Shown here: piece by piece, positions 5,320 through 16,475 of the stretch
Numbering within the stretch: the stretch's first letter is position 1
How the letters are laid out: every line of letters starts with the position of its first letter
NCBI RefSeq assembly: GCF_008014745.1
Contig: NZ_VPFD01000031.1
Location: 1 to 64,000, forward strand
Length of the DNA: 64,000 bases
Source of the DNA: Massilia arenae
GTDB lineage: Bacteria; Pseudomonadota; Gammaproteobacteria; Burkholderiales; Burkholderiaceae_D
Direction: 5' to 3'
Position numbers and translations under genes: made by a program
The notes under the pieces: generated by a model
The model's database searches: none
Told to the model about the DNA's origin: nothing
What the model saw: the letters and a program-made list of their open reading frames with translations, nothing else

Positions 5320-5913
5320 CTATGGTTCATTCCTGACCACAATATGGTCGAGCCGGGCCTCGGTTTTGGCAAATGCCGGACCGGCCGCGCACAGGCGCTG
5401 CACCTGGGCCGGATGCGGACGTTCCACATGGCCGTCCTCGTAGGCCAGCACCTGCAAGCCACCGTCTTGCGCCAGCCCCAGCAGTTCGCCAGGCGCCAGC
5501 AGGAAGGCAGGATTGGATGGTTTGCCGTAGATCTGGTTCCCCTGCGCGAAAGTTTCGTAGATCAGGATGCCGTCCGGCCGCAGGCTGGCCGCAAGAAAGG
5601 CGAACAGGGGCCGGTGCAGGTAATTGGTGACCACGATCGCCGAAAAACGCCCCGCCTCGAAGGGCCAGGGCGAACCGTCGGCCTCGAGGTCGTAAGCCAT
5701 CGTCGTGACGTTCTCGCCCGCGCTGGCGGCCAGCGCCTCGGGTTTAAGGTCCAGCGCCAGCACCTGCAGGCCGCGCGCCGCCAGCAGGCGCGTGTGGCGG
5801 CCGTTGCCGCAAGCCAAGTCGAGCGCCTCGCCCGGCGGCGCCAGGGAAACGAAGCGTTCCACCCATGGCGACGGCGGCAGAGTCTGCATATTCACACGCG
5901 GCGCGTCTGGCAT
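5320..5913 (-). CDS. Class I SAM-dependent methyltransferase
   Basis: This 197-residue Rossmann-fold methyltransferase shows motif I as [10 protein letters not shown] (about 31-40), motif [12 protein letters not shown] and motif [14 protein letters not shown]. The pattern resembles the TehB/thiopurine-type group of small-molecule methyltransferases; the substrate cannot be told. It begins 4 bases after the stop of the upstream site-2 protease gene, so the two are translationally linked, and the run continues from the YciO-type gene. A second Met at codon 9 is a possible start. Confidence 0.88.
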
Positions 5914-5917
5914 GGCG

Positions 5918-6571
5918 TCAGAACAGCACGGAGGTGAACGGCAGGACCATCAGGTCCACGATCCAGCGGCCCAGCTGCATTACCGGCACCACCCAGTAGC
6001 CCACCAGTTGCAGGAACACCAGGCCCAGCACGACGAAGAAGCCGTAGGGCTCGATGCGGGCGAATTTCCAGGCCAGGCTGTTGGGCAGCATGCTGGTCAA
6101 GACCCGGCCACCGTCCAGCGGCGGGATCGGCAGCAGGTTGAAGGCCATGATCAACAGGTTCGTCAGGATGCCGGCCTCGGCCATGCGGCGTGGGAAGGCC
6201 TCGTTGACGCCGAAGAACACCAGCAGCGCCGCGAACAGCAGCCAAAACGCAGCCATGATCAGGTTGGCGATGGGACCGGCCAGCGCGACCCAGGCCATGT
6301 CGCGTTTCGGATTGCGCAGGCGGCCGAAGTCGACCGGCACCGGCTTGGCGTAGCCGAACACGAAGGGCGTGAACAGATACATCATGATCGGAATCACGAT
6401 GGTGCCCCAGATGTCGACGTGCACCAGCGGGTTCAGGCTCATGCGGCCCTGGGAATAAGCGGTGTTGTCACCGAAAAATTTGGCGGCGTGGGCGTGGGCG
6501 GCTTCGTGCAGGGTAATCGCAAAAAGGACGGGCAGCGCGTAGACGGCGATGTTGCGTATCGTTTCATCCAT
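5918..6571 (-). CDS. Site-2 protease family (M50) membrane metalloprotease
   Basis: This 217-residue integral membrane protease has the zinc motif HEAAH (His22, Glu23, His26) in the first membrane helix and the third ligand in PIPPLDGGRVL (Asp153), both characteristic of S2P-type intramembrane proteases. About five membrane helices are visible. It is the compact form without PDZ or CBS domains, so no substrate can be inferred. It lies in a same-strand run with the YciO-type gene upstream and a methyltransferase 4 bases downstream. Confidence 0.9.
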   Translation of the reverse strand: MDETIRNIAVYALPVLFAITLHEAAHAHAAKFFGDNTAYSQGRMSLNPLVHVDIWGTIVIPIMMYLFTPFVFGYAKPVPVDFGRLRNPKRDMAWVALAGPIANLIMAAFWLLFAALLVFFGVNEAFPRRMAEAGILTNLLIMAFNLLPIPPLDGGRVLTSMLPNSLAWKFARIEPYGFFVVLGLVFLQLVGYWVVPVMQLGRWIVDLMVLPFTSVLF

Positions 6572-6629: not shown

Positions 6630-7253
6630 TCAGAGGCCGAAGGCTGCCGGATCGCCCCTGCCCTCGCGCACCAGTTCCGGTTCGGGGCCGGTGAGGTCGA
6701 TGATGGTGGTCGCCTCCAGCAAGCCGGCGCCGCCGTCGATGATCAGCTCGATCTGTTTTTCCAGGCGCTCGCGCACTTCTTCCGGGTCGGACAGCATGTG
6801 GTCATCCCCCGGCAGTTGCAGGGTGGTGCCGATCAGCGGCTCGCCCAGTTCTTCGAGCAGCGCCAGCGTGATGCGGTTCTCGGGCACGCGCAGGCCGATC
6901 GTCTTGCGCGACGGGTGCGACAGGCGGCGCGGCAGTTCGCGCGTCGCCTCCAGGATCACCGTGTACGGGCCCGGCATCGTGGCCTTGAGCAGGCGATACT
7001 GCGTGTTATCGACGCGCGCGTATTGCGCGACCTCGGACAGGTCGCGCACGAGCAGCGTCAGGTGGTGCTTGTCGTCGATGCCGCGGATCCGGCGCAGCTT
7101 GTCGACCGCCGCCTTGTCGTCCAGGCGGCATACCAGCGCATACGCGGAATCGGTCGGCAAGGCGACGATGCCGCCGCTGCTGACGATCTGCGCCGCCTGC
7201 TTGATCAGGCGGGCCTGGGGATTCTCGGGGTGGATCTGGAAATATTGGCCCAT
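6630..7253 (-). CDS. YciO/YrdC/Sua5-family protein (threonylcarbamoyl-AMP synthase fold)
   Basis: The 207-residue single-domain protein matches the YciO branch of the Sua5/YrdC family: GGIVALPTDSAYALVCRLDDK near the N-terminus, then the KHHLTLLVRDLSEVAQYA segment and the MPGPYTVILEATRELPRRL core that binds nucleotide and RNA. True YrdC makes threonylcarbamoyl-AMP for tRNA t6A; the role of YciO is less certain, so I do not assign the t6A reaction. It lies between htpX (18 bases upstream) and the site-2 protease on the same strand. Confidence 0.88.
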   Translation of the reverse strand: MGQYFQIHPENPQARLIKQAAQIVSSGGIVALPTDSAYALVCRLDDKAAVDKLRRIRGIDDKHHLTLLVRDLSEVAQYARVDNTQYRLLKATMPGPYTVILEATRELPRRLSHPSRKTIGLRVPENRITLALLEELGEPLIGTTLQLPGDDHMLSDPEEVRERLEKQIELIIDGGAGLLEATTIIDLTGPEPELVREGRGDPAAFGL

Positions 7254-7271
7254 CTAAACGTCCTTGATTGA

Positions 7272-8147
7272 TTAACGCAGTTGCTGGAGCGCGGCGATGC
7301 GCTGTTCCATCGGCGGGTGGGTCGAGAACAGCGCGCCCCAGCCGCCGCCGCTACCGGAAATGCCCGACGCCGACATCGTCTTGGGCAGCGCGCCCGGCGC
7401 CAAACCGCCCAGGCGGGCCAGCGCATGCTGCATCGGTACCGGACTGCCCATCAGTTTCGCGGCGCCGGCGTCGGCGCGGAATTCGCGCTGGCGCGAGAAC
7501 CAGGCAACGATGATCGAGGCCAGCAGGCCGAACAAAATTTCGAGCACAATCACGCTGGCAAAGTAGCCGATGCCGGGGCCCTCGCCCTCCTTACGGAACA
7601 ATACCTTGTCGACGAAGAAACCGACCACACGCGCCAGGAACACGACGAAGGTATTCACCACGCCCTGGATCAGGGTCAGGGTGACCATGTCGCCATTGGC
7701 GATGTGCGCCACCTCATGGCCGAGGACGGCTTCGACCTCGTCCTGGTTCATGCTCTGCAGCAGGCCAGTCGAGACGGCGACCAGCGCCGAGTTCTTGAAC
7801 GCGCCCGTAGCGAACGCGTTCGGCTCGCCCTCATACACGGCGACTTCGGGCATGCCGATGCCGGCGCGCTCGGACAGGCGGCGCACGGTCTGCACCAGCC
7901 ATTGCTCGGTAGAGTTGGCCGGCTGCTCGATGACGCGCGCACCGGTCGACCACTTGGCCATCGGTTTACTCATCAGGAGCGAGATGATGGCGCCGGTGAA
8001 ACCGATCACCACTGACAACACGGCCAGTTCGCCGACATTGATGCCCTGTGCCGAGACACCCCGGCCCAGGCCGAACAGATTCATCACCAGCGTCAGTACC
8101 AGCACGACGGCAAGGTTGGTGGCAAGGAACAGAACGACACGCTTCAT
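7272..8147 (-). CDS. htpX: Membrane zinc metalloprotease HtpX
   Basis: HtpX is an inner-membrane M48 protease that removes misfolded membrane proteins. This 291-residue chain has two N-terminal membrane helices, the zinc motif HEVAH (about residues 144-148), two further hydrophobic segments (about 160-210) and the third-ligand region [14 protein letters not shown]. The ATG at 8147 is preferred over one at 8156, because a GGAG lies nine bases before the former and abuts the latter. It heads the run toward the YciO-type gene. Confidence 0.95.
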
Positions 8148-8244
8148 GGCAGACATCTCCGCTAAGTTGATGGCAAGATGCCAAGATTGGGCTGGACCGC
8201 GCGAAATTCAAGGCCCAGCCATTATCGAACCGGGCCTTGACGCC

Positions 8245-9357
8245 TTACCTCTGCAGGAAAAAGCGCAGCATCTCGCGCGAGGCGTTGGGGCCGAGCGCAT
8301 CGGTATGCGAACCGGCCGCATCACCGCCCGCCCAGGTGTGGCCCGCGCCGTGCACGATCCAGTGCTCCGCCATCGCCCGCCCTTCTTCGTCGCGCCAGGT
8401 GCGGTGAGTAGCGCGGCGCCCGCCCTGGGTGGATTCGGTCTCGCTCGCATGCAGCGGCGTGGCGCGCAAGCCGGCGTGGGCGCCGACAAATTGCTTCAGC
8501 ACTGCCTCGCCATTGCCCTGATTGACCACGTGGTCGGCATCGCCATGGAAGACGATCACCGGCACCGCCTCGCGCAGGCTGCGCCCGCGGCCGGGCTTTT
8601 TCATGGCTTGCAGGCCCGTGATCATGTCGCGCGCGCTGCCCGCCGGCAAGCCGGAATGGACGCCGATCGCGGCGAACAGTTCCGGATACTCGGCGCCGAG
8701 CACCGCCGCCATCGCGCCGCCGGCCGACATGCCGGCCACGAACACCTGCGACGGCTCGGCATCGTATTCCCGCATCACCTCGCGTGTCATGCCCGCCAGG
8801 ATTCCGGGTTCGCCCGCATCGCGCGCCTGGTGGCCCGGCTCGAACCAGTTCCAGCAATGTGAATGGTTGGCGCGGCCGTCCTGCTCGGGGTACAGCACCA
8901 GGAAGCCGAATTCTTCGGCCAGCGCGTTCATGCCGGTGCCGACCGCGAAATCGTCCGGGTTCTGGGTGCAGCCGTGCAGCATCACGACCAGCGGACGGCG
9001 GCCCTCGGCCGGTTTTGCGGGAATGTACAGCTTGTAGCGGCGGCTGCCCGCTTCGCCCGCGTGGCTACCGGCGATGAAGCGGCCGGGCGCTGCCTTCGCG
9101 GACGCCGATGGGCGCGCCGCAGGCCGGGGCGGGACGAAGCGCTTTCCCGCACTCCGGCTCCAGTCGGGCGCCGGGTTCAGGTCGACGAATTCCGGCTGGC
9201 GCGCAAACGCGCTGGCTGCGGGATGCGCCTGGGGAGTGGCCAGGCCGGCCTGCGCCAGTGCCTGCTGGATCACGGCGGTCGCGCCAGACATGTCCTTGCC
9301 GCGCACCATGCGCGCCGATTCCAGCATCTGGCCGATAAAACGATCGAGGTTTTTCAT
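8245..9357 (-). CDS. PHB depolymerase-like extracellular esterase (alpha/beta hydrolase)
   Basis: This 370-residue protein matches the PHB depolymerase/feruloyl esterase family: oxyanion segment VVMLHGCTQNPDDF, the nucleophile Ser in GMSAGGAM (about residue 211), an acid in VFHGDADHVV and a final His in GAGHTWAGG. No classical signal peptide is visible; the first about 90 residues look like a helical extension, so location is open. The start MKNLDRF is 1 base downstream of the stop of the ribbon-helix-helix gene, so the two form an operon and the palindromic operator at 9797-9825 probably controls both. Confidence 0.85.
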   Translation of the reverse strand: MKNLDRFIGQMLESARMVRGKDMSGATAVIQQALAQAGLATPQAHPAASAFARQPEFVDLNPAPDWSRSAGKRFVPPRPAARPSASAKAAPGRFIAGSHAGEAGSRRYKLYIPAKPAEGRRPLVVMLHGCTQNPDDFAVGTGMNALAEEFGFLVLYPEQDGRANHSHCWNWFEPGHQARDAGEPGILAGMTREVMREYDAEPSQVFVAGMSAGGAMAAVLGAEYPELFAAIGVHSGLPAGSARDMITGLQAMKKPGRGRSLREAVPVIVFHGDADHVVNQGNGEAVLKQFVGAHAGLRATPLHASETESTQGGRRATHRTWRDEEGRAMAEHWIVHGAGHTWAGGDAAGSHTDALGPNASREMLRFFLQR

Positions 9358-9358
9358 A

Positions 9359-9790
9359 TCAATTCCCATAACGGGTGTAAATGCGGTCTGCCAGCGCCTG
9401 CCGGACCGCCGGGGCGGCAACGAAGGCGCCAAGCACATGGATCGAGGCGATCGCCTGCACGGCAAGCTCTACCGGCACGTCGTCTTCGATCACGGCCAGA
9501 CCGAGCACATTAATTTCAAGCTGTTCCCCCTGAGCCACTACCTGCTCGAGTTCGCGCAGCGAATAACGGTGCAGGCCCATGACGTAGCGCTTGCGCACGA
9601 CGGCCTGGCGGATCACGTCGGCATGCTGCTGCAACAGATTGCGAATCGCCGCACGGACGAGGTCGGTGCGATTGGAATAAAAGCCTTCGTCGACCAGAAG
9701 ATCGACCTGGGCCAGGTCGACCAGGCCGACATTGACGGTGACCTTGTCGCTATCAGGCAGCCTTGCTTGGGACAATGCTCGCTTTACCAT
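9359..9790 (-). CDS. Ribbon-helix-helix (CopG-type) transcriptional regulator
   Basis: This 143-residue regulator begins with an RHH DNA-binding domain (VTVNVGLVDLAQVDLLVDEG, then YSNRTDLVRAAIRNLL). The rest, about residues 55-143, is a mixed segment that may bind an effector. It overlaps functionally with the downstream esterase gene (1-base gap). Three ATACTCC-type half-sites in its promoter, 11 bases apart, point to autoregulation. The partner signal is unknown; no toxin gene accompanies it, so I do not call it an antitoxin. Confidence 0.85.
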   Translation of the reverse strand: MVKRALSQARLPDSDKVTVNVGLVDLAQVDLLVDEGFYSNRTDLVRAAIRNLLQQHADVIRQAVVRKRYVMGLHRYSLRELEQVVAQGEQLEINVLGLAVIEDDVPVELAVQAIASIHVLGAFVAAPAVRQALADRIYTRYGN

Positions 9791-9796
9791 CTACTC

Positions 9797-9825
9797 ATAC
9801 TCCTATAATACTCCAATTGGAGTAT
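9797..9825. promoter_or_regulatory. Probable RHH operator: three 7-bp half-sites at 11-bp spacing
   Basis: ATACTCC occurs at 9797-9803 and 9808-9814 and its inverse GGAGTAT at 9819-9825. The last two form an 18-bp perfect palindrome (9808-9825). The array sits 7 to 35 bases before the regulator start codon at 9790. RHH proteins typically bind such tandem short half-sites. Confidence 0.7.
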
Positions 9826-10017
9826 ATTATGCCGATAAGTGGTAACGCACAAGCTTTTCCAGCGGGATTGGAACCTATGGTCCATTTAGCAAAAGTTCCC
9901 GGAGCCGGCTGGCGCAGTGAGAGGTATCAAGCTCGCACCGTCTGCGCGCACGCGTGTATTGAAGTGCCTTGAACGCTCCATTAGGCTCTCCTTACCACGT
10001 CATTCCGGGGGCTCATC

Positions 10018-10476
10018 ATGGACTGCAAGTCGACTGATCGCATTGCCTTCAAACAGCAGCTTTTTGCCCGTGAAGAACTCTCCCGGCGCTGGCCGGCACT
10101 GAACAAATACATCAGTTCCACGACCACGCTCGAAGCGGCCTATATCAATACGGAACAGCTGATTGGCAACCGCCTCGAGATCTCGCGTGGCACGGCCCAG
10201 GAGGCGCTCGACTTCTACAACAAGGTGGTGCAGGACGGCCGCTACATCGATCGCCTGCTGGAAGCGCCACAAGAAGTGGCGGAGAAACTGAAATTGCCGC
10301 TTTCCGAGGACGCCATCAAGCGGCTTGTCACGGTCAACGAATTACTTCCCCCTGGAGGCACGGTAATGAATATCGCCGTGGTGGCCATCGCAGTGGCCGT
10401 GACCGTCGTGATCGTCAAGGGCATCGATCCGCTGGAAGAACTCGTCATTGACCAGCGCGGCTTCGTGAGACTGTAG
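10018..10476 (+). CDS. Candidate RiPP precursor: NHLP-like leader, PPGG, Val/Ile/Ala-rich core
   Basis: This 152-residue protein precedes a radical SAM RiPP-maturase-type gene by 3 bases. Residues 60-105 (TAQEALDFYNKVVQDG, then RLLEAPQEVAEKLKLPLSED) look like the C-terminal part of nitrile-hydratase-like leader peptides. A PPGG (111-114) would be the cleavage point, giving a 38-residue tail: a very hydrophobic stretch of V, I and A (116-133), then IDPLEELVIDQRGFVRL. The leader-GG-VVxAVxV layout recalls proteusin precursors such as polytheonamide. A GGAGG (10354-10358) before an in-frame ATG (10366) could also start a 36-residue membrane peptide. Family membership is an inference; a plain membrane protein is the alternative. 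Confidence 0.65.
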   Translation: MDCKSTDRIAFKQQLFAREELSRRWPALNKYISSTTTLEAAYINTEQLIGNRLEISRGTAQEALDFYNKVVQDGRYIDRLLEAPQEVAEKLKLPLSEDAIKRLVTVNELLPPGGTVMNIAVVAIAVAVTVVIVKGIDPLEELVIDQRGFVRL

Positions 10477-10479
10477 CGC

Positions 10480-12411
10480 ATGGAGACATCGGCGCCGAAC
10501 GTCGTGCTGGCCAGCCTGCCGTGGGCAACCTACGCCGAGCCCTCGCTGGGTCTGGCGACATTGAAGGCGGAACTGGACCGAGCGGGTATCGCTTGCCGGG
10601 TGCGCCACTTGAACCTGCGATTGCTGCGCTATGTCAGTGCGCAATCGTGTTCGATGCTGGCCACGTTCTGGGGCATCAATGAATTCCTGTTTACGGGACT
10701 ACTCGACGGCGAACTGGACGACGAGCAAGCCGCATGTCTTGCCGAGCGCTGCGCCGTGCATGCGGCGACGGTCCAGCAAGACCGCTACCGCTCGACCGAA
10801 GCGCTGCTGCATCTTTGCCTCCACCTGCGCGACGACGTCATGCCGCGCTACCTGGCCGAGTGCGCCGACGACATCCTGGCCTTGCACCCCACGCTGGTGG
10901 GATTCACTTGCATGTTCGACCAGACCCTCGCGTCCGTTGCCCTGGCACGCCTGCTCAAGACCCGGCGCCCCGGCCTGCCCGTGGTCCTCGGTGGCTATGC
11001 GCTCGAAGGAATACCTGGCGATAACGTACTGCGCAGCTTCCCATGGATCGATGCCGTGGCGCGCGGGGACGGCGAACCGCAAATCGCCCGCCTGGCCTGG
11101 GCATCGGTGGGAAAGGACGACTTTGCCCGGATTCCCGGCATCCAGCTTCGCCCGGGGCCGGGAGCCATGCAAACGCCTGCCCCCAAGGGGCTGGCGGCTG
11201 AGCTTGACCGCAACCCGCCACCCGACTACACCGACTGGTTCGCCGACCTCGACGCCCTTCAGTCCGACGAAAGCATCACCGTCCACAGCAAGGTGCTGCC
11301 GGTGGAGGCGTCACGCGGTTGCTGGTGGGGCCAGCACAAGCACTGCGTTTTCTGCGGCATCGACGAAGACACCCTGCGTTATCGCGCCAAATCGCCGGGG
11401 CAGGTGCTGGCCATGCTGGACGCCATGCGCCAACGCCATGGCGATCGCATCTATCGCTTCTCGGACTATATCCTTCCGCGCCAGTACTACCACGACATGC
11501 TCGACCAGCTGGCGCAGACTTGCCCGCGGCTGCGCCTGATGGGCGAAATCAAGGCCAACCAGAGCGACGAGCGCCTGGGCCGTTTCGCGGCAGCGGGCTT
11601 CGTCGAACTCCAGCCTGGCATCGAATCGTTCTCGTCCGACGTGCTCAAGCTGATGGACAAGGGGGTGCGCGGCATTCATAACGTGCTGACCCTCAAATCC
11701 GGCTACCGGCACGGCATCCAGATCAATTACAACATCCTGTATGGTCTACCCGGCGAGCAGGCGACCTGGTATCGCGCCATGTTGCGTCAACTGCCCAAGC
11801 TATATCACCTGACGCCGCCAGTCAGCCGCACCGAAACCATCGTCACCCGCTTTGCCCCCTTGCAAGCTGACCCGACGCGCTTCGGCCTGTCGAGCAAGCC
11901 GCGCCATCATCGCTGCTACGACGTCATGTTTTCCCAAGCCTTCCAGGATGAACACGATTTTCGGCTGGACGACTATGCCTACTATTTCGCGCGCGGCTTC
12001 GACTACCCGCAAGACCTCGGGATTCTCTATCGGATGCTGGTGGAGCAGGTCGACCACTGGAAGGAGCAGCATCGGGAACGGGATGTCTATCTCTATTACG
12101 TCGATGACGGAGAAGCGCTGACCGTGCACGACAGCCGCTTCGGCGCCGAATGCATCAGGCGCTTCGACGGTCTCGAGCGGCGCCTGCTGCTCGCCTGCGA
12201 TGACGCGACCCAGACGCTGGAGGCCATCGCGCTGGCATTGCCGGAATTTCACCGGAACGCCATCGCGCCTGCCGCCCAGCTGCTGGCAGACGAGTATCGC
12301 CTGCTTTGGCGCGAAGGCGAACACTATCTATCCCTGGCGCTGCCCCAGGAAGTCTGGCAGCGCCATCAGGCGAGCAACTGGCCAAAGAGCTGGACCGCGA
12401 ACTACTGCTAG
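10480..12411 (+). CDS. B12-binding radical SAM protein, RiPP maturation C-methyltransferase type
   Basis: This 643-residue enzyme has a cobalamin-binding-type N-terminal domain (about 1-205, with PVVLGGYALEG and AVARGDGEPQIARLAW), a radical SAM core and a helical C-terminus of about 200 residues. The cluster cysteines are C281-x7-C289-x2-C292 within SRGCWWGQHKHCVFCGI, the spacing and CWWG signature I know from the ribosomal-peptide maturation radical SAM family 1. Members are thought to methylate unactivated carbons of precursor peptides. The start lies 3 bases after the stop of the candidate precursor, so the two are translationally coupled. No peptidase, transporter or second modifying enzyme is adjacent. 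Confidence 0.85.
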   Translation: METSAPNVVLASLPWATYAEPSLGLATLKAELDRAGIACRVRHLNLRLLRYVSAQSCSMLATFWGINEFLFTGLLDGELDDEQAACLAERCAVHAATVQQDRYRSTEALLHLCLHLRDDVMPRYLAECADDILALHPTLVGFTCMFDQTLASVALARLLKTRRPGLPVVLGGYALEGIPGDNVLRSFPWIDAVARGDGEPQIARLAWASVGKDDFARIPGIQLRPGPGAMQTPAPKGLAAELDRNPPPDYTDWFADLDALQSDESITVHSKVLPVEASRGCWWGQHKHCVFCGIDEDTLRYRAKSPGQVLAMLDAMRQRHGDRIYRFSDYILPRQYYHDMLDQLAQTCPRLRLMGEIKANQSDERLGRFAAAGFVELQPGIESFSSDVLKLMDKGVRGIHNVLTLKSGYRHGIQINYNILYGLPGEQATWYRAMLRQLPKLYHLTPPVSRTETIVTRFAPLQADPTRFGLSSKPRHHRCYDVMFSQAFQDEHDFRLDDYAYYFARGFDYPQDLGILYRMLVEQVDHWKEQHRERDVYLYYVDDGEALTVHDSRFGAECIRRFDGLERRLLLACDDATQTLEAIALALPEFHRNAIAPAAQLLADEYRLLWREGEHYLSLALPQEVWQRHQASNWPKSWTANYC

Positions 12412-12469
12412 CCGTCGCTACCGATGCATGCCCGCGCCCGCGCCGTCGCAGCAGGCGAAGGCGCCCACC

Positions 12470-14215
12470 TCAGTTCCTGACGATGCGCGAGGATGCCGGG
12501 GTGTGGATCTTCTTGAACTGCAGCCCCCGGGCTTCGTCGCCAATGATCTGGAAGCCGGTCACCTCTTGATTACTGCCGCGCTCGAACCTGAGCCCGCCCA
12601 TGAACGGCTTGTTGCCCGAAAACCTGTTGGCGTCGAGCGGCTTGAAGTCGACCTGGCCGACGCGCAGATTGCGTGCGCTGAGCCCCCCTTTGCTGACCGT
12701 GAAAACATAGGAAGCATTGAGCTCTTCGTTATGGAAGGTGCCTGCGAACTGCTCCAGTTCCCGATCGGTGTACGACACGGGCTTGTAGGATTCGAACACC
12801 ACCGGGTCGCTCGCCCCCATGCTGTAGTGCATTTCCGGTCCCTGCTTGCCATCGACGAACTCGACGAAATAATGGTCGTCGCCCTCGATCTTCAGCTGGA
12901 ATCTCGCGCCGCCCAGGGGAATCAGTTCACGCCCCGGCGCTCCGCCTGCCCGGCCGTAATACAGGACGTCGTCCTTGACGTAGATAACAGCAGGAACCGC
13001 CCGGACTGCGGTCCAGTAATTGCCCGCGTATTGCGCGAGCTGGGCCGGCGCGACCTTCACGCGCCCGATGCGCGAATAGTCGATCGTCAGAGGCTCGAGA
13101 AACTGTTTTTCGAGCAGGACGGACGCCAGCCGCATGCCATAACTTCCGCTGTAGTCCAGCCCCGAGCTCAGTACGACGACCGAAACATCGTGATCGGGAA
13201 AGCTGAACACCGAACTCGCGTAGCCGCCAACGCCGCCGATCTGGTATTTCTTCGAGATACCTCTCTCCTGGCCCGCATGCTGCTGGCCGTAGGTCGAGAC
13301 CCTGGCGATATCGCGGATGACCACCCCGCTATCGAGCTTGATCGGCTGGTTCAGCTTGTCGGCCAGGGCCTGATTGCCGGGCGCGGGCGCTGCCAGGCTG
13401 GCGCGCCAGAGCGACAGATCGCGTATCGAGGAATACAGATTGACCAGGCCGGGGGTGTTGCGTCCGCCCACATCGTGTTTGTAGACGCCATCTCCCGCAC
13501 TCCGGTAAGGAACCGCCCTGTTGGCCATGAACTGGGCGTCGTCAACCACGAACCGCGTGTTCGCCATGCCCAAGGGCGTAAAGATATTCTTCTTGCTAAA
13601 GACATCGAAGGACTCTCCGGAAACGACTTCGACGATCCTGGCCAACAGGATGAACCTGCTGTCACCGCCTGGCGAGAATTCTTCGCCTGGTTTGAAATTC
13701 AATGTCTTCTGGCTCTTGATCAGGTCAAGAACGGCTGCGTTCTGCCCGGGCCCGCTCGCCTCCCACCCTGCCAGGGCTTGCAAGACCTTGTAGCCGGCGA
13801 CCCCGTCGGTCGAGCTCAGCAGGTGATTGACGGTGATTTTTTCGCCAAGGTCGGGCAGCTCGGGCAGATACTTTCTGATGTCGTCGCTCAGCTTGATCTT
13901 GCCCTGGCTTTCCAGCATCAGGGCAGAATAGGCAATGAATTCCCATGCGAGCGTATCGATCTGGAAGCTGGTATCGACAGTTGCCGGAATACCGTGCTCC
14001 AGATTGGCATGGCCATAGGCCTTCTGGTACACCAGCTCCCGGTTCTTGAACATGGCCACCGCGAGCGCCGGCCGGGGAACACTGAAGTCGCTGAACACCG
14101 CATCGAATTTCTGCATGGTGGCGGCGTCGATGCTGTTGCTGGCATGCGCCGGCAGCGACAGCGGTGCGAGACATGCCAGCACAAAACGCATTGCCATGAG
14201 ACCGTGATTCTTCAT
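12470..14215 (-). CDS. Exported beta-lactamase/serine-hydrolase-fold protein without catalytic motifs
   Basis: A signal peptide (to ALPAHA, about residue 26) leads a 581-residue class C beta-lactamase-like protein. Family landmarks are clear: TSFQI, GKIKLSDDIRKYLPELPD, ITVNHLLSSTDG, FTPLGMANTRF and VVVLSSGLDYSGSYG. Yet the SxxK nucleophile site reads TLAW (88-91), the YxN position reads FSP (180-182), and the HxG region reads GGVGGYASS. A C-terminal beta domain (about 395-581) follows. It is probably a non-catalytic periplasmic or secreted binding protein. It converges on the RiPP locus with 58 bases between stops. A DJ-1-like gene lies upstream. Confidence 0.85.
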   Translation of the reverse strand: MKNHGLMAMRFVLACLAPLSLPAHASNSIDAATMQKFDAVFSDFSVPRPALAVAMFKNRELVYQKAYGHANLEHGIPATVDTSFQIDTLAWEFIAYSALMLESQGKIKLSDDIRKYLPELPDLGEKITVNHLLSSTDGVAGYKVLQALAGWEASGPGQNAAVLDLIKSQKTLNFKPGEEFSPGGDSRFILLARIVEVVSGESFDVFSKKNIFTPLGMANTRFVVDDAQFMANRAVPYRSAGDGVYKHDVGGRNTPGLVNLYSSIRDLSLWRASLAAPAPGNQALADKLNQPIKLDSGVVIRDIARVSTYGQQHAGQERGISKKYQIGGVGGYASSVFSFPDHDVSVVVLSSGLDYSGSYGMRLASVLLEKQFLEPLTIDYSRIGRVKVAPAQLAQYAGNYWTAVRAVPAVIYVKDDVLYYGRAGGAPGRELIPLGGARFQLKIEGDDHYFVEFVDGKQGPEMHYSMGASDPVVFESYKPVSYTDRELEQFAGTFHNEELNASYVFTVSKGGLSARNLRVGQVDFKPLDANRFSGNKPFMGGLRFERGSNQEVTGFQIIGDEARGLQFKKIHTPASSRIVRN

Positions 14216-14291
14216 ATGGATCGATTCCTGTGTTTATTGTAGTGACCAGCCTGTTTCAGCTGGCTGCAAACGATGTGCGGGGATTCGCCGC

Positions 14292-15089
14292 TCAGGTTTT
14301 CCTCTGGATTGCCTTGATCACTTCCTGGGCGACCGACACGGTCGCCGAAGGGTCCTGTCCGGTAATGATGTTGCCGTCGACAATGTAGAAATTCGCCGCC
14401 CATTTTTTTGAATACTCAAAATTCCCGCCCTGCCGGCTGACTTCCTTGTCGATCGAAAATGGGAAGGTCTTGTAGTAATCGGCCTTTGTGTTTTCGAACA
14501 AATCGGGAAAGCCGGTGATGTTTCGGCCGGCCAGCAGCGAGCTGCCATCGATGTTTTTCAAGTTGACGATGCCCGCAGTGCCATGACAGATGGCCGACAC
14601 CACGCCACCACTGCGGTAGATTGCAGTGGCAATTTCTTGAATGTCCTTGTTGTCGGCCACCCCGAACATGGCGGATCCGCCACCGCTGTAATAGACCGCC
14701 CTGTAGTCGCCGGCCCTGACTTGCCGTGGATGACGGGTATTCTTGAGAAGACTCATGAATTGCGCGTCATACAAGTGCGCTTTTTGGATTTCATTTGCCG
14801 TGTCAATATAATTTAGTGGAATAGCCCCTCCTTCCGGACTCACCACATCCACCACATAGCCGTTCTTCCGAAACACATCATAGGCAATCACAATTTCTTC
14901 GAAATGATTGGCGGCGCTGATACTGGTATTTCCATACGTATGCTGGTTTGACGTGACGATCAGGATTTTCTGCCCTTGCCCGGACGCAGCGTTAGTGTCC
15001 GGGGATACCGGCGATGCGAATGCGCACTCAGGCTGGAATAGCAGGAGATAAAGCGCCATTAATATCTGAAAGAAGAAAGGTCGACACAT
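14292..15089 (-). CDS. Exported DJ-1/PfpI-family protein
   Basis: This 265-residue protein carries a type 1 glutamine-amidotransferase-like (DJ-1/PfpI) domain with the conserved nucleophile Cys168 in SAICHGTAGI and the acidic pair in HFEEIVIAYDVF. Members include chaperones, glyoxalases and proteases; the activity cannot be fixed here. Unlike most members it starts with a signal peptide (MCRPFFFQILMALYLLLF...CAFA), so it should act in the periplasm or outside. The ATG at 15089 is preceded by AGGTGA. It lies downstream of a membrane AraC regulator and upstream of the degenerate serine-hydrolase gene, all on the minus strand. Confidence 0.85.
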   Translation of the reverse strand: MCRPFFFQILMALYLLLFQPECAFASPVSPDTNAASGQGQKILIVTSNQHTYGNTSISAANHFEEIVIAYDVFRKNGYVVDVVSPEGGAIPLNYIDTANEIQKAHLYDAQFMSLLKNTRHPRQVRAGDYRAVYYSGGGSAMFGVADNKDIQEIATAIYRSGGVVSAICHGTAGIVNLKNIDGSSLLAGRNITGFPDLFENTKADYYKTFPFSIDKEVSRQGGNFEYSKKWAANFYIVDGNIITGQDPSATVSVAQEVIKAIQRKT

Positions 15090-15293
15090 ACATTCACCTG
15101 AAAATGTAGAAATACCTGTTACCGAAGGTAGATACGGTTGCCCGGCCGCGCACCCGCCCGGATCGGTTGTCCGGGAGCGATACGCGGCGTCGGTAGCCAA
15201 TATAGGATTGCCGCCTGGCGCCGAGTTCATGAACCATGATTTCGGACTCCGGATACATGATTCCGCAGCCGCAGGCACGCGCAGCGCCGCGGC

Positions 15294-16475
15294 TCACCCG
15301 GGGCGGGAGCAAGAAACGATCGGGGGGAGAGGTTGCCGCAGCTTGGGCTGGGTGGCGTATTTCCAGGGCCCGGACAGCGGCCCGGAAAGGCTACGACGCG
15401 GCGTACCCACGGTGCGATCCGTACAGGATGGAAGTGAAGCAGATGCACGGGCGGCGCGATAGCTCGCCGGCGTCTGTCCGGTGGTCTTTTTGAATGCAGC
15501 GAAGAAGGTGGAGGTCGAATTAAAACCGCTGCACTCGGCAACGAGTCCCATATTCATGCGAGATTCACTGATCAACAAGTCCTGGGCATGCTGGATGCGG
15601 AACTCATTGATATACAGATTAAAACTTTTACCCAGATTCTCGTTGATTACCTGGGACACCGTGGTTTGCAGATTCCCGACCTTTTTTGCCAGCAACGCCA
15701 GGCTCAGATTGGGATTCAGGTAGAGCTGCTGTTCACGCATCACCCGGTTCAGCGATTCGATCAGCTCGCCAGCATCCTGGCCAGTCAATTTGCGATTCTG
15801 GTATTTTTCTTTCTTGGCGACCTCGGCCTTCGCTCCATGGTGCACGATCCAGGACAAGATCGCGACGTGTACCGAGAAGGTGAATGACAAGGCGCCGACA
15901 ATATACGAGGTCAGTGGCGTAGTCACATACGCGGCCAGCAGCAGGAAACTACCGGAATATACGCTCAACAACAATATATTGCCGCGGATAAGCTTGCCGT
16001 CCGCATCGCGCAACACCGCACGCGATTGCCACAGCTTCTTCCCCGCCAATAGCAGATACGCAAACCAATACCCATGGATGCCGCAGACATAGTAAAACCA
16101 TGCGTTTGGATACTGGGAATACGGGAAATTCACCGCGATCAGGATGATGCAGGATGCCGACAGGAGATGCCAGCGCCAGCGATCGTTTGCGGCGCTGGCC
16201 TTCAGATCGGCCAGGTGACTATCTACGTAAAGATAGGTCAAGGGCCCGATCAGCAGGCAGGCCGCCAGTCCGATCTGCAGAAACTCGATGGCGAGATCGG
16301 GATTGAAGTAATAGAACGTCGATTTGACTGTGCGAAAACCGACCGAGATCAACAAGGCGCCCAGCATGGCATGCGTGAGGCGGTTGCTGCGGCGAGTAAA
16401 AAAATACAGCGCCAGGAATACGCCATTGACCCCACCAAGGACGCTGAACAAAAAGAGTAACTGGCTCGACATCAC
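15294..16475 (-). CDS. Membrane-bound AraC-family transcriptional regulator
   Basis: This 393-residue regulator has about seven hydrophobic segments in its first 225 residues, then an AraC HTH domain (about 240-340: LSLALLAKKVGNLQTTVSQVINE, then FNSTSTFFAAFKKTTGQTP). Such fusions sense a signal in the membrane and bind DNA directly. The last about 50 residues after the HTH (SLPSCTDRTVGTPRRSLSGP onward) are Pro/Ser/Arg-rich and unlike the family, possibly a read-through after loss of the original stop. The exported DJ-1 gene 204 bases downstream is a likely target. The 15090-15293 gap shows no clear site. Confidence 0.87.
   Translation of the reverse strand: MMSSQLLFLFSVLGGVNGVFLALYFFTRRSNRLTHAMLGALLISVGFRTVKSTFYYFNPDLAIEFLQIGLAACLLIGPLTYLYVDSHLADLKASAANDRWRWHLLSASCIILIAVNFPYSQYPNAWFYYVCGIHGYWFAYLLLAGKKLWQSRAVLRDADGKLIRGNILLLSVYSGSFLLLAAYVTTPLTSYIVGALSFTFSVHVAILSWIVHHGAKAEVAKKEKYQNRKLTGQDAGELIESLNRVMREQQLYLNPNLSLALLAKKVGNLQTTVSQVINENLGKSFNLYINEFRIQHAQDLLISESRMNMGLVAECSGFNSTSTFFAAFKKTTGQTPASYRAARASASLPSCTDRTVGTPRRSLSGPLSGPWKYATQPKLRQPLPPIVSCSRPG

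What the first reader, a model, noticed from the sequence alone, without database searches (positions are those of the whole stretch)
10018..12411. Minimal RiPP locus: proteusin-like precursor plus B12 radical SAM C-methyltransferase
Seen: a 152-residue protein with a leader-like helix region (60-105), PPGG (111-114) and a Val/Ile/Ala-rich tail ends 3 bases before a 643-residue enzyme with a cobalamin-type N-domain and C281-x7-C289-x2-C292 in SRGCWWGQHKHCVFCGI. Known: this radical SAM family (RiPP maturation radical SAM protein 1) modifies precursors with nitrile-hydratase-like leaders; polytheonamide's PoyA has a similar GG-then-Val/Ala core methylated by B12 radical SAM enzymes. Inferred: the tail is a C-methylated hydrophobic RiPP from a locus with no peptidase, transporter or second tailoring enzyme. 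The core differs by an acidic, charged end (IDPLEELVIDQRGFVRL).
Basis: partly seen in the sequence, partly recalled or inferred. Interest (0 to 1): 0.9.

Follow-up and report, generated by a model that had tools for sequence, protein, structure and literature searches.

The report
Two-gene peptide C-methylation cassette
A small protein and the vitamin-B12-dependent radical enzyme encoded right after it form a two-gene unit, found here in fifteen bacteria of several phyla, that most likely adds methyl groups to an oily stretch of the small protein; it matters because the end of the protein, usually the variable part of such products, keeps one pattern in all of them.

Summary
The two genes are as described. 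The 643-residue enzyme is a clear TIGR03975 member (460 bits, cut-off 282) with an OxsB/TsrM/TokK-like fold. The 152-residue protein passes no leader model (best E 0.018) but belongs to a family of 15 members, each directly before such an enzyme, in five or more phyla; 13 of them were found through the enzyme. Nine other TIGR03975-like loci lack it. The family shares an Os1348/NHLP-like block, a Val/Ile-rich, Leu-poor hydrophobic stretch and a C-terminal pattern [VI]xD(x5-7)[KR]Φ (15 of 15; 0 of 304 control ORFs). The "unusual acidic end" is this pattern. PPGG is not conserved. No third gene is common to the loci. A relative has the site without the pair. Best reading: a minimal RiPP-like substrate/enzyme cassette that C-methylates the hydrophobic stretch; the product may stay in the membrane. 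The chemistry is inferred, not shown. New variant of a known kind.

The parts
10018..10476 (+). precursor-like protein, 152 aa (short form of the family)
   Evidence: homologous ORF directly before the enzyme in all 15 members found
10234..10344 (+). Os1348/NHLP-like block of the leader (residues 73-109, DGR...P...LS...)
   Evidence: NF038399 E 0.018 at residues 69-107; D73, P84 and S96 invariant in 14 rows; PDB profile hit to Os1348 6lk7 at E 0.073
10372..10416 (+). Val/Ile/Ala-rich hydrophobic stretch (residues 119-133), putative modified region
   Evidence: V+I 0.59 and no Leu in the best 17-residue window; residues 116-135 identical at 18 of 20 places in P. guangdongensis against 67 of 115 in residues 1-115 (Fisher p 0.006)
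10420..10473 (+). C-terminal tail (residues 135-152) with pattern V143-x-D145-x5-R151-L152
   Evidence: 15 of 15 members match [VI]xD(x5-7)[KR] plus a hydrophobic end, 0 of 304 control ORFs; letters of residues 136-152 are only 10 of 17 identical to P. guangdongensis
10480..12411 (+). B12-binding radical SAM enzyme, TIGR03975, 643 aa
   Evidence: TIGR03975 459.9 bits over cut-off 281.85; Radical_SAM over and B12-binding under cut-off; model pLDDT 89.7; fold matches OxsB, TsrM, TokK
11314..11355 (+). [4Fe-4S] cluster motif RGCWWGQHKHCVFC (Cx7Cx2C)
   Evidence: cysteines invariant in 14 aligned enzymes
12091..12333 (+). C-terminal winged-helix-like domain (residues 538-618), possible leader-binding (RRE-like) domain
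   Evidence: three strands, three helices, two strands in the model; of ten C-terminal pieces scanned only L036 (wHTH families) and L035 (PqqD E 0.085) gave such hits, the window none
9827..12491 (.). segment without counterpart at the same site of relative G011
   Evidence: window 9702-9826 and 12492-12600 align to L093 7376-7501 and 7139-7248, with 127 unaligned bases between

Best explanation
This is a self-contained two-gene RiPP-like cassette. The small protein is a dedicated substrate: an NHLP/Os1348-type helical leader, a V/I-rich hydrophobic stretch, and a C-terminal tail with a kept pattern. The enzyme, probably docking the leader with its C-terminal winged-helix domain, uses the [4Fe-4S]/SAM radical and methylcobalamin to add methyl groups to unactivated carbons, most likely beta-carbons of Val/Ile in the hydrophobic stretch, as PoyC does in polytheonamide. 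With no peptidase or exporter common to the loci and a tail that keeps its pattern across phyla, the product is probably not a hypervariable secreted antibiotic but a molecule with one conserved job, perhaps at the membrane, either uncleaved or trimmed by a housekeeping protease. Shown: genes, families, pairing, conservation, presence or absence of both genes together at one site. Inferred: substrate role, leader docking, C-methylation, its place, and the fate of the product.
For: TIGR03975 over cut-off in 10 of 10 paired enzymes scored with the model (window; G060, G247, G257; L035, L036, L040, L041, L042, L045; the other 5 were not scored); precursor before the enzyme in 15 of 15 members and no precursor match (all E over 1) at 9 of 9 other TIGR03975-like loci, of which the three annotated ones have Nif11, CefA or pheganomycin-type precursors; 14 paired enzymes and 9 others split by a 100/100 branch; V+I 0.57 and Leu 0.05 on average in the best hydrophobic windows of 15 members against 0.29 and 0.23 in 37 control windows; Cx7Cx2C in 15 of 15, as reported for PoyC, which methylates Ile and Val (PMC11285071, passages); fold of B12 radical SAM enzymes; tail pattern; site without the pair in G011.
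Against: No leader model passes its cut-off in any of the 15 precursors; the precursor model is poor and matches no solved fold; the RRE role is an argument from topology; Cx7Cx2C is also in 7 of 9 other TIGR03975-like enzymes, so it does not mark Val/Ile methylation. In letters the tail is no better kept than the leader between close relatives (10 of 17 against 67 of 115), and the leader block has more invariant columns than the tail. TIGR03975 enzymes serve very different precursors. The hydrophobic stretch could be a plain membrane anchor.
Confidence: 0.55

Rival explanations
1. Protein-type methylation: the hydrophobic stretch is only a membrane anchor and the enzyme modifies one or a few residues of the tail or near it, as MgmA modifies a single residue of a large protein; the product is a full-length, tail-anchored membrane protein.
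For: One Asp and the classes of three further tail positions are kept in 15 of 15, while the hydrophobic stretch is kept in kind but not in letters outside close relatives; no protease common to the loci; MgmA is among the fold matches.
Against: Val/Ile bias and near-absence of Leu are unusual for a plain anchor; the hydrophobic stretch is the best kept part between Massilia and Pseudoduganella; annotated TIGR03975 loci go with RiPP precursors.
Confidence: 0.22
2. Classic secreted proteusin: cleaved at a double glycine, exported and acting on other cells, peptidase and exporter being supplied from elsewhere.
For: GG at the NHLP motif-2 position (9-11 residues after the serine) in 4 of 15 members; the genome has one C39 peptidase domain, on another contig; M48 and M50 peptidases lie near the pair here and an RND pump lies 133 bases before the precursor in L034.
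Against: PPGG not conserved in the two nearest relatives; no peptidase or exporter common to the loci; tail pattern kept rather than hypervariable.
Confidence: 0.1
3. The pair is a RiPP-type pair but the chemistry is not methylation (cross-link, epimerisation, oxidation).
For: B12 radical SAM enzymes outside TIGR03975 do other chemistry: OxsB, the best PDB hit, is a ring-contraction enzyme (recalled), and ApyD, a weak profile relative (78.5 bits, cut-off 750), belongs to a pathway of macrocyclic peptides (recalled; listings).
Against: NCBI names TIGR03975 a C-methyltransferase; 12 of 15 members have no Cys in the last 60 residues, and aromatic residues there number 0-5.
Confidence: 0.12
4. Adjacency by chance; the small protein is unrelated to the enzyme.
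For: No leader-family hit over cut-off.
Against: Adjacent in 15 of 15 across phyla; no match at 9 other TIGR03975-like loci; both genes absent together at the site in 9 of 9 relatives' stretches.
Confidence: 0.01

Closest known systems
Polytheonamide / aeronamide proteusins (PoyA with PoyB/PoyC; aer cluster)
   Same: Long NHLP-type leader, Ile/Val of the core methylated by a B12 radical SAM enzyme with Cx7Cx2C (PMC11285071, passages)
   Different: Those pathways also dehydrate, N-methylate and epimerise, here there is one enzyme; PPGG not conserved; tail pattern kept; leader only remotely NHLP. PoyA, PoyB and PoyC were not compared directly
TIGR03975 loci with Nif11, CefA or pheganomycin-type precursors
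   Same: Same enzyme family
   Different: Different precursors; enzymes on the other side of a 100/100 branch
Os1348 (Pseudomonas sp. Os17, PDB 6lk7; NF038399)
   Same: Sub-threshold profile match of the leader block in 11 of 15 members; PDB profile match E 0.073
   Different: 85-residue protein beside an acetyltransferase and a protein with a peptidase MA match; 'radical SAM' does not occur in the main text of that paper (search inside PMC7726476)
MgmA (methyl-coenzyme M reductase glutamine methylase, 9ccb)
   Same: B12 radical SAM methylase acting on a protein; fold match E 4.4e-12
   Different: Only a weak profile relative (26 bits to TIGR04014, cut-off 360); substrate is a large enzyme

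Membership tests
TIGR03975 RiPP maturation radical SAM C-methyltransferase | Score over the curated cut-off over the full model | tested here: met
   459.9 bits against 281.85, model positions 1-606 of 606
TIGR03975 RiPP maturation radical SAM C-methyltransferase | Transfers methyl to carbon of a precursor peptide | not testable with these tools
   needs an enzyme assay or MS
NHLP precursor TIGR03793 | Leader model over cut-off | tested here: not met
   Not listed for the window protein; L035 15.0 and L041 11.9 bits against 50.9
NHLP precursor TIGR03793 | Motif 2 ending in Gly-Gly, followed by a hypervariable core (Haft et al. 2010, PMC2887384) | tested here: not met
   GG at the motif position in 4 of 15, not in the window; tail pattern kept
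NF038399 Os1348 family, NHLP clan | Domain score over 40 bits | tested here: not met
   Window 15.2 bits; best member L044 30.3 bits, E 3.2e-7: remote relation, not membership
Polytheonamide-type proteusin | Dehydration, C- and N-methylation and epimerisation in one pathway | tested here: not met
   One radical SAM enzyme; of 14 neighbouring window proteins scanned by Pfam none is a radical SAM epimerase or a dehydratase of that kind; one class I methyltransferase of unknown target at 5320-5913
Polytheonamide-type proteusin | B12 radical SAM enzyme with Cx7Cx2C | tested here: met
   motif for PoyC from PMC11285071; not specific, as 7 of 9 other TIGR03975-like enzymes have it
RRE-containing radical SAM enzymes | PqqD-like recognition domain | tested here: inconclusive
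   winged-helix topology in the model; PqqD E 0.085 in L035 only, no family for the window piece

The most novel reading that the evidence does not exclude
A rare, horizontally moved family of uncleaved, membrane-anchored proteins whose transmembrane segment itself is C-methylated (tert-leucine-type residues), with the C-terminal tail as the working or recognition part: a B12-dependent membrane-protein modification system rather than a secreted natural product.
Probability: 0.2. Interest if true: 0.85.

Novelty: new variant of a known kind. Interest (0 to 1): 0.58.

Why it matters
If right, this is about the smallest possible C-methylation unit: one substrate, one enzyme, easy to express, and apparently passed between phyla as a pair. 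A tail pattern kept over that distance suggests a kept function, unlike the hypervariable cores of many RiPPs, so it can be tested directly, and it gives a simple system to ask how B12 radical SAM enzymes choose aliphatic carbons. No Pfam (9 of 15 members scanned) or NCBIfam model (15 of 15) covers the precursors over cut-off.

Tried and rejected
PPGG as a cleavage site: rejected as a family feature. Solved fold for the precursor: none. Precursor on plasmids: none for the window's (E up to 0.1) or L039's (E up to 0.01). Viral contigs: 20 pattern stretches, none confirmed. Further copies in the own genome: only an E 0.45 match, fetched but not studied. Rfam families over gathering score in 9000-13000: none. 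Consensus promoters or terminators in 9600-12700: none. Defence models: enzyme none; precursor 14 bits, E 0.0048, to a CARF/HEPN model, taken as chance. Foreign base composition: not striking (pair 62.5% GC, window 63.7%, precursor alone 57.5%). RRE by profile: inconclusive.

Literature: no paper holds Massilia, radical SAM, RiPP and precursor peptide together; 3 papers hold TIGR03975 or Os1348. Further searches. I saw passages of PMC7726476, PMC8326336, PMC11285071, PMC9062424 and PMC2887384, and section 8 of the last (94); other papers only as listings. That this family is unpublished is only 'not found in these searches'.

Limits of the counts: the 14 loci were found by similarity to the window enzyme, so pairing and clade are partly by construction; L043 was left out of the pair count because its contig starts inside the enzyme; L070 came and is not in the tree; the tail pattern was written after seeing the 15 sequences, and its 304 control ORFs were not filtered for coding; the 37 hydrophobic control windows come from 7 stretches; the genome searches scored only part of the first-look candidates in some genomes (e.g. 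24 of 54); starts of the long forms, L042 and L045 were chosen by me.
Full report
What is there. On the left, other strand, lies a ribbon-helix-helix regulator of family RHH_8 (9359-9790); on the right, other strand, a beta-lactamase-fold serine hydrolase (12470-14215). So the transcription unit can hold just these two genes. Further left, also on the other strand, lie a PHB-depolymerase-type esterase, an M48 peptidase (7272-8156), a Sua5/YrdC protein, an M50 peptidase (5918-6571) and a class I methyltransferase (5320-5913); M. timonae has the same order, so I take them as backbone genes.

The enzyme. It scores 459.9 bits against TIGR03975 (cut-off 281.85, whole model), with Radical_SAM over and B12-binding under the Pfam cut-off. 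Of the other paired enzymes, the nine that were scored all pass too. The motif is Cx7Cx2C, a spacing that the review PMC11285071 calls unique for PoyC (passages); it is in 15 of 15 paired enzymes but also in 7 of 9 other TIGR03975-like enzymes, so it does not single out this clade. A model of mean pLDDT 89.7 matches OxsB, TsrM, TokK, MgmA and CysS. Residues 538-618 form three strands, three helices and two strands, the look of a winged helix; a leader-binding role is inferred, with weak profile support in two of ten pieces scanned.

The small protein. Alone it hits nothing over a cut-off: NF038399 (Os1348 family, NHLP clan) at E 0.018, residues 69-107. Fourteen loci with relatives of the enzyme showed the rest. 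Reading the ORFs before the enzyme gave six clear homologues. A profile of those seven C-terminal parts, run on six-frame translations of all loci then held, hit the ORF directly before the enzyme in the other seven usable loci at E 6e-21 to 3e-10, and nothing else below E 1. Thus 13 of the 14 loci (L043 starts inside the enzyme) plus the window have the pair. A 15th member, G1548 (L070), was found with the precursor profile and has the enzyme directly after it. Records: Massilia timonae, Pseudoduganella guangdongensis, a Pseudoduganella MAG, Duganella, Jannaschia, Roseococcus, an alphaproteobacterial MAG, two Bacteroidales MAGs, Rhizohabitans (Actinomycetota), an Armatimonadetes MAG, a Rokuibacteriota MAG and a MAG named only 'bacterium'; G1548 is unnamed.

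Anatomy of the family. There is a short form (131-218 aa; window, L033-L037, L042, L045) and a long form (275-286 aa; L038-L041, L044, L046, L070) with an extra N-terminal domain. The six long forms scanned, and L036 and L045, show a second, weaker match of the leader block before the main one (7-22 bits). All 15 have the block D[GN][RQ]...P...[SN], whose end resembles NHLP motif 2, ELSDEQLDAVAGG (Haft et al. 2010, section 8). A Gly-Gly at the motif-2 place (9-11 residues after the serine) is in 4 of 15 (L038, L039, L041, L046); the window's PPGG lies at 17 and is PPGS and TPGS in its two nearest relatives. NF038399 is listed for 11 of 15 members, TIGR03793 for L041 and L035, neither for L034 and L045, all under cut-off; the best is L044, 30.3 bits, E 3.2e-7. 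A profile of seven members finds Os1348 (6lk7) in the PDB at E 0.073. I read this as a remote NHLP-clan leader, not as membership.

Next comes a hydrophobic stretch rich in Val and Ile: mean V+I 0.57 and Leu 0.05 over the best 17-residue window in 15 members, against 0.29 and 0.23 in 37 hydrophobic control windows (Mann-Whitney p 3e-8 and 8e-8). Between window and P. guangdongensis 18 of 20 of its residues are identical, against 67 of 115 in the leader (Fisher p 0.006). Last comes the tail: all 15 end in [VI]xD(x5-7)[KR] and a hydrophobic residue (13 with exactly five between), 0 of 304 control ORFs do (pattern written after seeing the sequences). Five members end in DRSGxxK[FL] and L041 in DVSGMQKI; the window has VIDQRGFVRL. 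In letters the tail is not better kept than the leader: 10 of 17 to P. guangdongensis, and only its Asp is invariant, while the leader block has three invariant columns. What is kept is the pattern, over a distance at which NHLP cores are described as hypervariable (passages).

Pairing and spread. At nine other TIGR03975-like loci (four on plasmids; five in four genomes of the window's GTDB family) the precursor profiles give nothing better than E 1.7; the three annotated ones have Nif11 proteins, CefA and a pheganomycin precursor. The 14 paired enzymes and the 9 others are split by one 100/100 branch. The cassette is rare. Precursor matches: 2 of 101 genomes (own and M. timonae); own genome only in 300 of the order and 398 of the phylum; around other carriers 1 of 113 and 1 of 200 (the carrier itself), 2 of 200 (carrier and G1548) and 2 of 31 (both already known). 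In the window's GTDB family 8 of 392 genomes have TIGR03975 over cut-off and 4 of these 8 have the cassette.

The site. Nine relatives' stretches around the regulator gene have neither gene of the pair (9 of 9). G011 has the clearest site: LysR, PHP, AraC, a remnant match to DJ-1, serine hydrolase, regulator, esterase and M48 peptidase in the window's order, and window 9827-12491 has no counterpart, 127 unaligned bases standing there. In G004 and G025 the PHP gene lies 192 and 156 bases from the regulator. M. timonae has the pair but not AraC, DJ-1 and serine hydrolase. So the two genes came or went together.

No third partner. Among ORFs within 8 kb of 15 enzymes (less where contigs end), cross-locus matches outside the pair at E up to 1e-4 number nine: the downstream ORF of the two Bacteroidales (46% identical), and eight between scattered genes, among them ABC-type ATPases and nitronate monooxygenases; window against M. 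timonae (97 syntenic matches) was left out. Single loci do have transporters near by: an RND pump 133 bases before the precursor in L034, and an ABC ATPase with an FtsX-like permease after the enzyme in L046.

How it probably works. The leader is held by the enzyme, the SAM radical takes a hydrogen from an unactivated carbon, and methylcobalamin gives the methyl. The V/I bias points to Val/Ile beta-carbons. What the product does is open; the kept tail pattern and the lack of a common peptidase or exporter argue for a kept task, perhaps at the membrane, and against a hypervariable antibiotic. The genome has one C39 peptidase domain on another contig, and M48 and M50 peptidases near the pair, so cleavage in trans is not excluded. 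The modification itself is not shown by any search.

Noticed in passing
window 9808-9825: Perfect 18-bp palindrome ATACTCCAATTGGAGTAT just before the RHH_8 regulator gene and upstream of the precursor; G011 has ATACTCCATATGGAGTAT at the same place. Likely operator of the regulator; it might also touch expression of the cassette.
   Followed up: partly
window 12470-16475: AraC regulator, DJ-1/PfpI and serine hydrolase genes between the PHP gene and the cassette, missing in M. timonae; in G011 AraC and serine hydrolase are present and DJ-1 only as a 41-residue match.
   Followed up: partly
L036:3398-3961 and L037:2812-3378: Hydrophobic ORF overlapping the end of the enzyme gene in both Bacteroidales (46% identical, no Pfam family over cut-off); possible partner of the cassette there.
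   Followed up: partly
L038-L041, L044, L046, L070: Extra N-terminal domain (GGGDGGG...TENGVRPIPPF...GGFTCGSTGKPPIPLPWPP and the like) on the long-form precursors; no Pfam family over cut-off in the six scanned.
   Followed up: partly
L045:5645-7195 and 7202-7543: The enzyme of the alphaproteobacterial MAG seems split: the following ORF resembles, by eye, the C-terminal winged-helix part of the others.
   Followed up: no
L055, L056: Two TIGR03975 enzymes of the window's GTDB family in which the pattern used for the cysteine motif found nothing.
   Followed up: no
L044:6304-7038: Two small ORFs (153 and 87 aa, no Pfam family) directly before the Duganella precursor, about 9 bases apart.
   Followed up: no
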